Source of the DNA: Microbacterium sp. SL75
Lineage (GTDB): Bacteria; Actinomycetota; Actinomycetes; Actinomycetales; Microbacteriaceae
NCBI RefSeq assembly: GCF_026625865.1
Contig: NZ_CP113067.1
Coordinates: forward strand, 2,480,001-2,544,000
Direction of reading: 5' to 3'
DNA: 64,000 bases
Positions 14,877 to 29,475 of this stretch are shown here, piece after piece. A program made the translations under genes and the position numbers. The notes beneath the pieces are model-generated. The model ran no database searches. It was not told where the DNA came from and worked only from the letters and a program-made list of their open reading frames with translations. Each line of letters opens with the position of its first letter. Position 1 is the first letter of the stretch.

Positions 14877-14893
14877 CCCGTTTGGAGACTGCA

Positions 14894-17370
<2,477 letters not shown>

Positions 17371-17374
<4 letters not shown>

Positions 17375-17862
17375 GCGTTCGCCCGATCCGCCTGTTCGGC
17401 GACCCCGTCCTGCGCGCGCCCAGTGCGCCCATCGAGCAGATCGACGACGGCATCCGTGCCCTCGTCCAAGACCTGATCGACACGGTCGAGCTGCCCGGGC
17501 GCGCGGGGGTCGCGGCGCCGCAGATCGGCGTGGGTCTGCGCGCTTTCAGCTACAACATCGATGGCGACATCGGCTACGTGCTCAACCCCGTGCTCGTCGA
17601 GACGCGCGGAGAGCCGGAGCCGGTGGGGGAGGGGTGCCTCTCGGTGCCGGGTCTCTGGCACGATGCGCTGCGTTATCCGTGGGCCAAGGTCGTCGGAATG
17701 GACCTCGACGGCAACGAGGTCGTGCTCGAGGGCGAGGGGCTGCTCGCCCAGGCCCTGCAGCACGAGACCGATCACCTCGACGGCATGCTGTACCTCTCGC
17801 GCCTGTCCGCCGAGACGCGTCGCGAGGCGATGCGCCAGGTGCGCGAGAGCGACTGGTTCTGA
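17371..17862 (+). CDS. def: peptide deformylase
   Basis: A 163-residue metalloenzyme that removes the formyl group from nascent proteins. All three family motifs are present: GVAAPQIG (46-53), EGCLSVPG with metal ligand Cys89 (87-94) and QHETDHLDG with ligands His131 and His135 and catalytic Glu132. It starts 4 nt before the end of the acidic ATPase gene (ATGA overlap), so its expression is tied to that gene. No methionyl-tRNA formyltransferase gene is adjacent. The gene is followed by the 106-bp repeat array rather than an immediate terminator. Confidence 0.96.
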
Positions 17863-17891
17863 TTCGGAGCCGGGTCACGCGCTTCCCCCGG

Positions 17892-18396
17892 GATTCGCGC
17901 AACCTCCGTCGTTCTCGGCCATGTCGAGCCGTAGTCGTGCGGATCGCCGAGGTTGTGCGAGTCGCTGAGGTGCGGCTGGCGTCGGCGTATCCTCGGCGAT
18001 TTGCGCAACTTCCGTGGGTTTCCGGTGCGGCGGGCTGAGGTTGTGCGGGTCGCTGAGGTTGTGCGGGTCGCCGAGGTGTGGCCGGCGTCGGCGTACGTTC
18101 GGCGATTTGCGTAACCTCCGTGGGTTTCCGGTGCGCCGGGCTGTGGTTGTGCGGATGGCTGAGGTTGTGCGGGTCGCTGGGGTGTGGCCGGTGTCGGCGT
18201 ACGTTCGGCGATTTGCGTAACCTCCGTGGGTTTCCGGTGCGCCGGGCTGTGGTTGTGCGGATCGCTGAGGTTGTGCTGGTCGCCGAGGTTGTGCGGGTCG
18301 CTGGGGTGTGGCCGGCGTCGGCGTACTCTCCGCGATTTGCGCAACTTCCGTGGGTTTGCTGTGTGCCGGGCTGAGGTTGTGCGGATCGCTGACGTA
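17892..18396. repeat. tandem array of 106-bp repeats in a convergent intergenic region
   Basis: The 597 bp between the convergent def and fadD genes hold no convincing gene. Instead the motif gatttgcgyaac starts at 17892 (diverged), 17998, 18104, 18210 and 18334. This gives three exact 106-bp spacings and one of 124 bp, the latter explained by an extra 18-bp sub-unit of the type gaggttgtgcgggtcgct. The fifth copy is cut short near 18396. Within each unit, gcgcaacctccg is roughly the reverse complement of the repeated gaggttgtgcgg, so transcripts could fold. A period of 106 is not a multiple of 3, and the frames that stay open shift by one in each copy, arguing against a repeat protein. Confidence 0.9.
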
Positions 18397-18458: not shown

Positions 18459-20285
18459 TCAGGGGAGCGACACGTTGGTCGTGTTCACCGGCACGGCGTA
18501 GATGTCCTCGATGGCGTCGGCGAAGTCGGCGACGATGACGTTGCGCTTGATGCTCATCTTCGGCGTCAGGTGCCCGCTGGCCTCGGTCCACTCGGTGGGC
18601 AGGATCGTGAACTTGCGGATCGACTCCGCGCGCGAGACCCGCGTGTTGGCGCGGTCGATCGCGCCCTGCACCTCGGCGCGCACCTTGTCGTTCTCGGCCG
18701 CCTCGGCGAGCGGCATGTCGGCGGGCAGGCCGTTGTTGGCCAGCCAGGTCGGGAGCATCTCGGTGTCGAGCGTGACCAGGGCCGCGATGAACGGTTTGTG
18801 GTCGCCCACGACCACGACCTGACCGACGATCGGGTTCGCACGGATCGGGTCCTCGAGAGCGGCGGGAGCGACGTTCTTGCCGCCCGCGGTGACGATGATC
18901 TCTTTCTTGCGGCCCGTGATGGCGAGGAATCCGTCGCTGTCGAAGGCGCCGATGTCGCCGGTCTTGAACCACTCGCCGTCGAAGGCGTCGGCCGTCGCCT
19001 CGGGGTTCTGCCAGTACTCGCGGAACACGTTGATACCGCGCACCTGGATCTCGCCGTCATCGGCGAGACGGATGCCGACACCCGGCAGAACGGGACCGAC
19101 GGTGCCGATCTTCGACTTCGTGGCGAGGTTCACCGTGGCCGGGGCGGTGGTCTCGGTGAGGCCGTAGCCCTCGAGGATCACGACGCCGAGGCTGCGGAAG
19201 AAGTGACCCAGGCGGGGGCCGAGAGGGGCCGATCCCGACACCGCATAGACGATGTTGCCACCCATGGCATCCCGCAGCTTGGAGTAGACCAGCTTGTCGA
19301 AGAGCGCGAACTTGATCTTGAGCAGCAGGGGAATCGACTTTCCGTCCTGCAGGCGCTGGGAGTGCTCGATCGCGGCGTCGGCGGCGGCGCGGAAGATCCT
19401 GCCCTTGCCGCCGGCCTCGGCCTTCTGCTCGGCGGAGTTGTAGACCTTCTCGAACACGCGGGGGACCGCGAGGAGGAAGGTGGGGCGGAAGCTGCCGAGC
19501 GCCGGGAGGAGCTGCTTCGTATCGGGCTGATGTCCCGTCTTCACGCCCGCGTGCACGTTGAGCAGCGAGATGAAACGCGCGAACACGTGCGCCGTCGTGA
19601 TGAACAGCAGGGTCGAGGCGCCAGGGGTTTCGACGACCTCGTGCAGCGACTTGGCGGAGTTGCGCGCCAGCTCGACGAAGTTGCTGTGGACGAGCACGCA
19701 GCCCTTCGGACGGCCGGTGGAGCCCGAGGTGTAGATGAGGGTGGCGACGTCGGAGGCCTTCGCCAGGTGGCGGCGGCGCTCGATCTCTTCGTCGGTGATG
19801 TGCGTGCCGCCTGAGACGAGCGCGTCGAGGGCTCCCGAGTGCATCGCCCAGACCTCGCGGACGAGGGGGAGGTCGCTGCGGACCTCGTCGAGACGTTCGG
19901 CGTGTTCCGTGGACTCCAGGACCACGGCGATCGCACCGGAATCCGACAGGATCCACGAGATCTGCGACGGCGAGCTGGTCTCGTAGACCGGGACCATGAT
20001 GGCGCCGGCGTAGAACAGCGCGAAGTCGATCAGGGTCCAGTCGTAGGTGGTGCGGGCGATGAACCCCACCTTCTCGCCGGGCTGGATGCCGGCGGCGACG
20101 AAGCCTTTCGCGAGGGCGATGACCTGCCGTTCGAACTCGACGGCGGTGACGTCTCGCCATCCGTCTCGGTCGGGAACCGCGAACAGCGGCCGGTCGGGGG
20201 TAGCGCGGACGCGGTCGGCGAGCAGGTCGGACGCGTTGGCGTCGGGGTCTGCGGGGATGAGGGCGGGTTGATCGAACTGGATCAC
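18459..20285 (-). CDS. long-chain acyl-CoA synthetase (AMP-forming), FadD15 type
   Basis: A 608-residue ANL-superfamily enzyme that activates fatty acids to acyl-CoA via an acyl-adenylate. The P-loop TLIYTSGSTGRPKG lies near residues 183-195, GYGLTETTAP near 380, and the adenylate-binding and hinge region WFKTGDIGAFDSDGFLAITGRKKEIIVTAGG... near 430-465. The final Lys-containing segment (HLTPKMSIKRN) is near 580. Length and motifs match the bacterial long-chain (FadD15/FACL) group. A Shine-Dalgarno (ggag) precedes the GTG start, and TAGACT on the minus strand at 20328-20333 is a plausible -10 about 40 nt upstream. It is divergent from glk. The neighbourhood fadD-plsC-aroG recalls M. tuberculosis Rv2187-Rv2178c. 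Confidence 0.92.
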   Translation of the reverse strand: MIQFDQPALIPADPDANASDLLADRVRATPDRPLFAVPDRDGWRDVTAVEFERQVIALAKGFVAAGIQPGEKVGFIARTTYDWTLIDFALFYAGAIMVPVYETSSPSQISWILSDSGAIAVVLESTEHAERLDEVRSDLPLVREVWAMHSGALDALVSGGTHITDEEIERRRHLAKASDVATLIYTSGSTGRPKGCVLVHSNFVELARNSAKSLHEVVETPGASTLLFITTAHVFARFISLLNVHAGVKTGHQPDTKQLLPALGSFRPTFLLAVPRVFEKVYNSAEQKAEAGGKGRIFRAAADAAIEHSQRLQDGKSIPLLLKIKFALFDKLVYSKLRDAMGGNIVYAVSGSAPLGPRLGHFFRSLGVVILEGYGLTETTAPATVNLATKSKIGTVGPVLPGVGIRLADDGEIQVRGINVFREYWQNPEATADAFDGEWFKTGDIGAFDSDGFLAITGRKKEIIVTAGGKNVAPAALEDPIRANPIVGQVVVVGDHKPFIAALVTLDTEMLPTWLANNGLPADMPLAEAAENDKVRAEVQGAIDRANTRVSRAESIRKFTILPTEWTEASGHLTPKMSIKRNVIVADFADAIEDIYAVPVNTTNVSLP

Positions 20286-28943: not shown

Positions 28944-29375
28944 ATGCTGCTCGGAACGCACACACCCAAGCTCGACGACAAGGGTCGGGTCATCCTGCCG
29001 GCGAAGTTCCGTGACGATCTCGGCGCCGGAGTGGTGATCACGCGCGGGCAGGACCGCTGCCTCTACGTGTTCAGCACCGAGGAGTTCGAGCGCGTGCACG
29101 AGCGGATCCGCGAGGCCCCGCTCAGCAACAAGCAGGCCCGCGACTTCCTGCGCATGTTCCTCTCGGGGGCCAGCGCCGAGAAGCCCGACAGTCAGAACCG
29201 CATCACCGTCCCGCCCGCCTTGCGTACCTACGCGGGGCTCGGTCGCGAACTCGTCGTCACCGGCGTCGGAGCACACGCCGAGATCTGGGACGCCGAGGCG
29301 TGGAACTCCTACGCGGAGAGCAACGAAGAAACGTACGCCGAGATGGAACAGGAGGTGATCCCGGGACTCTTCTGA
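28944..29375 (+). CDS. mraZ: transcriptional regulator MraZ
   Basis: A 143-residue SpoVT/AbrB-like DNA-binding protein and first gene of the division and cell-wall cluster. It contains the two tandem half-domains of the family: [21 protein letters not shown] (residues 4-24) and the second [13 protein letters not shown] near 84-96. MraZ represses its own operon in E. coli. The ATG at 28944 gives the canonical N-terminus and is 12 bp from a Shine-Dalgarno (gaaggggg). The GTG at 28932 would abut that site, so it is not chosen. Probable target boxes lie at 28881-28905. Confidence 0.95.
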
Positions 29376-29475
29376 CCCTTCGGCTGTGATGCCCAGCCGC
29401 TCGCCCTGACGCACTTCCCCGGCGCCAGGTCGACGCGGATGGGGATCAGAGTTCGAAGGTTCCGCCCGACACATC

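What the first reader, a model, noticed from the sequence alone, without database searches (positions are those of the whole stretch)
17892..18396. Five-copy 106-bp tandem repeat array in a convergent intergenic region
Repeat starts at 17892, 17998, 18104, 18210 and 18334 give exact 106-bp periods, plus one copy enlarged by an 18-bp sub-repeat. Each unit pairs a gcgcaacctccg motif with two or three near-inverse gaggttgtgcgg motifs. The period breaks any reading frame, no CRISPR-like repeat/spacer structure exists, and no mobile element flanks it. It lies at the 3' ends of def and fadD, so it would be in both 3' untranslated regions. The copies are conserved but not identical, implying expansion followed by divergence. 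I know of no named element of this type.
Basis: seen in the sequence. Interest (0 to 1): 0.7.

Follow-up and report, generated by a model that had tools for sequence, protein, structure and literature searches.

The report
Nuclease-linked palindromic repeats in Microbacterium
The tandem array is one of many copies of a 66-base paired DNA site scattered between genes, and in related bacteria the same sites sit on both sides of a gene for a probable DNA-cutting protein, which points to a self-spreading repeat system built on a different enzyme from the best-known example.

Summary
The array is real: five units, period 106 bp, one step of 124 (106+18). It is one locus of a dispersed family (44 units at 15 places in this genome). 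The unit is a doublet: two inverted 23-bp arms around a spacer of about 20 bp whose length is kept and sequence is free; extra arm motifs follow in 18-bp steps. In 8 of the 17 genomes of its clade (Microbacterium testaceum group) a gene lies between copies of this very repeat. It encodes an AbiEi-antitoxin fold joined to a Vsr/homing-endonuclease-type nuclease (DUF559). Homologues elsewhere in the genus have their own, different doublets: flanking repeats at 50 of 70 loci against 3 of 233 control genes, and repeat sequence follows nuclease identity. A pattern search bore this out. RAYT transposases are absent from the 25 carrier genomes. Best reading: a REPIN-like repeat population whose partner is a nuclease. 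This genome lacks the cognate nuclease, so its arrays look like orphans. Binding, cutting and spreading are inferred, not shown.

The parts
17371..17862 (+). def, peptide deformylase; convergent neighbour
   Evidence: Pfam PF01327 E 8.5e-37; ORF
17886..17951 (+). doublet 1 (left arm 23, spacer 20, right arm 23), further right-arm motif at 17949
   Evidence: CM match 58.9 bits; unit scan; motif
17992..18057 (+). doublet 2, further right-arm motif 18 bp on (18055)
   Evidence: CM match 74.4 bits; motif
18098..18163 (+). doublet 3, further right-arm motif at 18161
   Evidence: CM match 66.2 bits; motif
18204..18269 (+). doublet 4, further right-arm motifs at 18267 and 18285 (the 18-bp enlargement)
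   Evidence: CM match 71.6 bits; motif
18328..18393 (+). doublet 5
   Evidence: CM match 73.8 bits
18414..18444 (.). GC-rich hairpin, terminator-like, between array and fadD stop; a similar one in 12 of 17 clade genomes, own included, by eye
   Evidence: read from sequence; termination not tested
18459..20285 (-). fadD, AMP-binding acyl-CoA synthetase; convergent neighbour
   Evidence: Pfam PF00501 E 2.2e-64

Best explanation
Each 66-bp doublet is a double-stranded binding site: two 23-bp arms in inverted orientation, each read by the AbiEi-like part of an AbiEi-DUF559 protein, so that two nuclease domains meet over the 20-bp spacer. Spacer length is kept and its sequence is not, as expected if cutting or nicking there needs no sequence of its own. 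Repair of such breaks would expand and contract tandem arrays and now and then copy a doublet to a new intergenic place. The nuclease gene has one close copy per carrier genome, beside valS, and is itself bracketed by its doublets. The result is a REPIN-like population of repeats that follows its enzyme. Shown by comparison: the family, the geometry, the gene-repeat association, its specificity and its generality in the genus. Inferred: binding, cleavage, repair-driven copying, and that the arrays in this genome are orphans of a nuclease that was lost or never arrived.
Against: No biochemical evidence. 20 of 70 homologue loci lack clear flanking repeats; the two Tsukamurella homologues that I read lack them. 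Flanking repeats of the nuclease could be mere operators. Inverted 23-mers of >=18/23 near non-R1 nucleases exceed controls only modestly (30 of 62 against 46 of 209). I saw no clean insertion or target-site duplication, but looked only at the def-fadD spacer and eight orthologous groups by eye.
Confidence: 0.72

Rival explanations
1. The doublets are operators. The AbiEi-DUF559 protein represses its own gene as AbiEi antitoxins do, and the dispersed copies are a regulon; the nuclease domain serves defence or repair.
For: AbiEi proteins bind 23-bp inverted repeats in their own promoters (PMC7319586 passages). AbiEi fold found here. Arms conserved at orthologous loci.
Against: Copies lie on both sides of the gene. 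Of 94 R1 loci 35 are convergent and only 12 divergent, a poor place for operators. Tandem copy number varies 1-8 at the same place between species. Repeat sequence changes wholesale with the nuclease.
Confidence: 0.15
2. Functional RNA hairpins or terminators: the repeats act in 3' untranslated RNA.
For: Inverted arms, G-U compatible on one strand; many loci at gene ends; in co-directional spacers 29 of 42 lie in the sense orientation.
Against: No covariation: 83.6% of cells paired against 84.7% in shuffles; GU and AC counts equal to column independence (299 against 305; 100 against 106). Variable positions lose pairing. Separate terminator-like hairpins are present in the def-fadD spacer (by eye).
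Confidence: 0.05
3. Ordinary REP/REPIN elements mobilised by a RAYT (Y1 tyrosine) transposase.
For: Same layout: extragenic inverted doublets with a variable spacer (PMC3116915 and PMC8049555, passages).
Against: Y1_Tnp found in 1 of 99 genus genomes, one without R1, so in 0 of 25 carriers; the partner found instead is an unrelated nuclease.
Confidence: 0.02
4. The repeats belong to the host, for example chromosome-organisation sites, and the nuclease gene merely settled among them and uses them as homology.
For: Arms kept at orthologous loci; nine of 17 carriers lack the close nuclease yet keep repeats.
Against: Repeat sequence tracks nuclease sequence across the genus and is shared only by close nucleases; genomes without R1 have other families beside their own nucleases.
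Confidence: 0.06

Closest known systems
REPIN-RAYT (REP doublets and REP-associated tyrosine transposase)
   Same: Extragenic inverted doublets with diverse spacer; enzyme gene single copy, at a conserved place, next to its own repeats; repeat type tracks enzyme type; genomes without the enzyme still hold repeats (RAYT facts from passages of PMC3116915 and PMC8049555).
   Different: Enzyme is AbiEi fold + Vsr-type nuclease, not an HUH/Y1 transposase; arms 23 bp with 18-19-bp period, spacer length fixed near 20 bp; no covariation for a hairpin; tandem arrays in half of the loci examined (47 of 94).
AbiEi type IV antitoxins (6Y8Q, Rv2827c)
   Different: C-terminal nuclease added; neighbours are valS and a peptide-binding-protein gene; repeats on both sides and dispersed; spacing about 20 bp instead of 3 or 13.
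EDxHD / Vsr-type homing endonucleases (I-Bth0305I)
   Different: Free-standing bacterial chromosomal gene between complete repeat copies, no intron or intein seen; the supposed target is a repeat family.
MIRU/VNTR and BOX-type tandem intergenic repeats (recalled)
   Same: Intergenic tandem arrays of about 100 bp with variable copy number.
   Different: Those have no nuclease partner that I know of (recalled); here geometry and partner are defined.

Membership tests
REPIN-RAYT | RAYT (Y1_Tnp, PF01797) encoded in carrier genomes | tested here: not met
   1 of 99 genomes has Y1_Tnp, and it has no R1 match; 0 of 25 carriers; named control genomes ring in 5 of 14
REPIN-RAYT | inverted doublet with short, highly diverse spacer, extragenic | tested here: met
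   offset peak at 39 in the open scan; 89 of 94 loci outside called ORFs (own gene caller); spacer 46% identical between unrelated places
REPIN-RAYT | single-copy enzyme gene flanked by its own repeats | tested here: met
   8 of 8 close nucleases, one close copy per genome, but the enzyme is not a RAYT
REPIN-RAYT | GTAG or CGTC tag at the palindrome | tested here: inconclusive
   arm consensus has neither; sequence outside the arms not tested
AbiE type IV toxin-antitoxin | AbiEi antitoxin fold | tested here: met
AbiE type IV toxin-antitoxin | DUF1814 toxin gene next door | tested here: inconclusive
   7 of 8 R1 nucleases have valS and a peptide-binding-protein gene on either side within 1.5 kb; the toxin family itself was not searched
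Homing endonuclease (EDxHD) | Vsr/EDxHD catalytic fold with conserved acidic residues | tested here: met
   E185, D211, D223, D235 invariant in 37 of 37
Homing endonuclease (EDxHD) | gene interrupts its own target site or lies in an intron/intein | tested here: inconclusive
   gene lies between complete doublets; the place is empty in 7 of 9 clade genomes without the gene, the other two not covered or not matched on one side
Homing endonuclease (EDxHD) | cleaves its target | not testable with these tools
   needs protein
Structured RNA / terminator | covarying base pairs | tested here: not met
Rfam families | match above gathering score | tested here: not met
   only mraW at 29371-29469 in the window

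The most novel reading that the evidence does not exclude
A second, independently evolved class of intragenomic repeat population in bacteria: natural TALEN/ZFN-like proteins (AbiEi DNA-reader fused to a Vsr-type nuclease) that bind inverted 23-bp arms, cut the free 20-bp spacer between them, and thereby maintain, expand and spread their own target doublets through the chromosome while changing arm specificity from lineage to lineage.
Probability: 0.5. Interest if true: 0.93.

Novelty: categorically new. Interest (0 to 1): 0.85.

Why it matters
REPIN-RAYT is the best-described case I know of a vertically kept enzyme with a lasting population of tiny repeats. A second case with unrelated parts would show that this way of life evolved more than once, give a function to AbiEi-DUF559 proteins (84 of 99 genus genomes), explain families of otherwise unexplained intergenic arrays in Microbacterium and perhaps beyond, and supply a set of naturally retargeted site-specific nucleases with a matched target for each.

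Tried and rejected
RNA function: covariance model R1 was useful for searching, but pair counts are no better than shuffles or column independence, so the hairpin reading was set low. RAYT partner: searched and absent from carriers. Coding reading: period 106 is not a multiple of 3; long minus-strand ORFs through the array were taken as GC-rich chance ORFs and not tested by homology. Phage or plasmid origin: no match of the array in 50,697 phage records; nuclease homologues in three Tsukamurella plasmid records only, at 34% identity or less; two of the three were read and lack flanking repeats. NCBIfam: no match for two nucleases; PADLOC: weak AbiEi and homing-endonuclease matches.

Faulty or weak steps: the first flank control was useless because flanks of syntenic loci align to each other; replaced. 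The first co-divergence run translated minus-strand genes in the wrong orientation; only its direct-period counts (38 of 44 at 18/19; other lag pairs 14/15: 11, 16/17: 5, 20/21: 2, 22/23: 9, 24/25: 3) are quoted, which do not use the proteins; the proteins were redone. The def frame was off by one; redone. A scan for 23-bp inverted pairs at >=15/23 did not separate targets from controls and at >=18/23 did so only modestly. The first unit finder was far too loose and was dropped. Copy number with against without nuclease: p 0.10.

Biases: the 94 R1 loci were chosen mostly from the best-scoring matches, and units by arm score and offset 38-40, so arm identity between unrelated places (78%) is inflated; offsets count each pair on both strands; loci of related genomes, and pairs, are not independent; the 17 genomes are the nearest by FadD identity (no tree was built), so R1 across them may be one origin. 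Control genes come from R1 loci and the window. Outside the genus 7 genomes gave one weak match each (30-35 bits), taken as chance. In the genus 8 of 82 genomes outside the clade had 1-4 matches; not followed. At order level 10 of 198 genomes have a homologue at E 1e-30 or better, 7 of them in the same genus. Foldseek's own list ('pdb') was not obtained; pdb_via was.

Literature: 10 searches of the held library. No paper holds both DUF559 and 'inverted repeats' or two of MTES_1575, DUF559, AbiEi; the 14 papers with DUF559 were seen as a listing with abstract starts only. Most subscription papers are not in that library.

Full report
1. The five starts and the 106/106/106/124 steps are exact, TRF reports period 106 with 18-bp sub-arrays, and the array lies between the converging def and fadD stops.

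2. It is a dispersed family. BLAST of two units and a motif scan of the window's own genome (3,436,786 bp, one contig) found the same unit at other places. From 34 units I built covariance model R1. It finds 44 distinct units at 15 places in this genome at E 0.1 or better (my count of the rows, both strands merged; 150 of 5978 candidates were scored, so a lower bound). One unit is a left arm CTCAGcGATTCGCGCAACCTCAG, a 20-bp spacer and a right arm CTGAGGTTGTGCGGATCGCTGAG (consensus of 193 units).

3. Spread. In 99 genomes of the genus 25 have R1 matches. Ranked by FadD identity, the 17 genomes at 87% or more (own included) are all positive (4 to 49 matches, both strands counted and capped at 49); 8 of the other 82 have 1-4 matches. 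Outside the genus 7 genomes gave one weak match each. Named records with an exact arm pattern are mostly Microbacterium, among them M. testaceum StLB037, with three MAGs labelled otherwise; some contig lengths of the G handles equal those of these records, which is why I write Microbacterium.

4. Geometry. In the unit scan limited to offsets 38-40, 174 of 193 units have a 20-bp spacer, 10 have 19 and 9 have 21.

5. Probably not RNA. Pairing is no better than shuffled and GU/AC counts equal independence. The same positions are nearly invariant in both arms (pattern CnGA-N6-GC-N2-ATCnCnGA, my reading), while the variable positions lose their pairing. That is the mark of a protein-read inverted site.

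6. Placement and age. Of 94 loci, 35 are convergent, 42 co-directional, 12 divergent, 5 overlap a called ORF (own gene caller). Twenty-six groups of loci share both flanking genes between species, with 1-8 units at the same place. At orthologous places arms stay while spacer and flanks drift (eight groups seen by eye): arms 79%, spacer 57% over 82 locus pairs; unrelated places 78% and 46%; within arrays 88% and 81% (arm values inflated by selection). Three clear pairs of units at different places in one genome are alike over about 74-86 bp and stop just outside the arms (by eye), so single doublets seem to have been copied. In the def-fadD spacer the neighbours are syntenic in all 17 genomes but R1 is present in only three (five, two, and one degenerate unit); several of the others carry a different palindromic family, GAGAACAGG (by eye).

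7. The nuclease. At one place in three genomes R1 blocks bracket a gene. The protein is DUF559 (E 1.1e-8). In the genus 84 of 99 genomes have a homologue at E 1e-30 or better; eight clade genomes have a close one (67-100%); outside the clade the highest identity listed is 65%, over part of the protein (the list is cut but sorted by E-value). All eight close genes have R1 on both sides; seven lie between valS and a peptide-binding-protein gene (sbp), the eighth next to valS at least. AlphaFold of the G073 protein gives pLDDT 92; residues 4-180 match AbiEi antitoxin and 181-279 match Vsr-type nucleases including homing endonuclease I-Bth0305I. E185, D211, D223 and D235 are invariant in 37 of 37.

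8. It is general in the genus. Six of six non-R1 homologue loci that I inspected for repeats have other repeats of similar build on both sides. Over 70 loci, 50 have upstream/downstream repeats scoring above 30 (6 of 8 R1, 44 of 62 others), against 3 of 233 control genes. Of the 44, 38 have an 18- or 19-bp period; other lag pairs are rarer (14/15: 11, 16/17: 5, 20/21: 2, 22/23: 9). Among those 50 loci, nuclease pairs at 70% identity or more share repeats in 26 of 26 cases; below 60% in 2 of 1104. This genome's own nuclease (C1:2343248-2344051, 38% identical) is flanked by the GAGAACAGG family, the family seen in the def-fadD spacer of relatives.

9. A prediction that could have failed. One repeat family seen beside nucleases of four genomes was searched as a pattern in 30 genomes: 21, 31, 35 and 12 hits in those four, 25 and 4 in two others, 0 in 24; reversed control 1 hit in total. 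The two unpredicted genomes each have a nuclease bracketed by those hits (G065:C2:195092-195913 and G012:C1:622443-623258, coordinates). The 15 plus/minus arm pairs of G049 are all 44 bp apart and the 12 of G065 all 43 (from the rows). Among 30 distinct doublets from the loci returned, 24 have 44 and 6 have 43, none overlaps a called gene, and arms are 83% but spacers 44% identical.

10. Mechanism. AbiEi proteins bind paired 23-bp inverted repeats, 3 or 13 bp apart (PMC7319586, passages). Here the arms are 23 bp and the gap about 20 bp. A nuclease carried behind each AbiEi part could meet its partner over the spacer, whose length is kept and sequence free. I infer cutting or nicking there, with array change and copying as repair outcomes. 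The life style matches REPINs (passages of PMC8049555 and PMC3116915), with an unrelated enzyme; Y1_Tnp is absent from all 25 R1 carriers searched.

11. The focal genome. It has no close nuclease. In 7 of the 9 clade genomes without it (own included) valS and sbp are neighbours with 179-318 bp between the matches and no nuclease match; in the other two the sbp side ran off the contig or was not matched. One of the nine (G070) keeps a single R1 unit of 48.5 bits at that place; the own genome has none there. The array of the finding is therefore best seen as an orphan array of an old repeat population; loss and absence from the start cannot be told apart here.

12. Limits. All evidence is comparative. 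Twenty of 70 homologue loci lack flanking repeats, two Tsukamurella homologues lack them, copy number does not differ significantly with nuclease presence (p 0.10), inverted 23-mers near other nucleases exceed controls only modestly, and no clean insertion site was found.

Noticed in passing
L285, about 1228-1306, 1373-1456 and 2437-2520 (G000:C1 around 2343248-2344051): The window genome's own AbiEi-DUF559 gene is bracketed by a second palindromic family (GAGAACAGG, 19-bp period), also seen in the def-fadD spacer of several relatives.
   Followed up: partly
L053:3144-3548 (G000:C1 about 2708643-2709047): A 184-bp tandem array with GCATAAACGCTC / GAGCGTTTATGC inverted motifs: perhaps a third family of the same build; no partner gene sought.
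   Followed up: no
L052:2595-2751 (G000:C1 about 3350094-3350250): 18-bp tandem repeat GCGGATCCCGGGGTGCCG directly beside R1 units.
   Followed up: no
L053:3707-3763: 16-bp tandem repeat TCGCGCCTCAGGCGTG, 3.6 copies.
   Followed up: no
window 15970-16041: CGACGC hexamer run inside the long acidic ORF upstream of def (14882-17374).
   Followed up: no
window 29371-29469: mraW RNA motif (RF01746), the only Rfam match above gathering score in the window.
   Followed up: no
L261, L286, L290, L291, L298, L313 flanks: DUF559 homologues with flanking repeats but no 18/19-bp period found: perhaps a different repeat type or regulatory sites.
   Followed up: no
G051, G071, G086: Genomes outside the clade with 2-4 R1 matches at E down to 4e-14: possible transfer of the system; not examined.
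   Followed up: no
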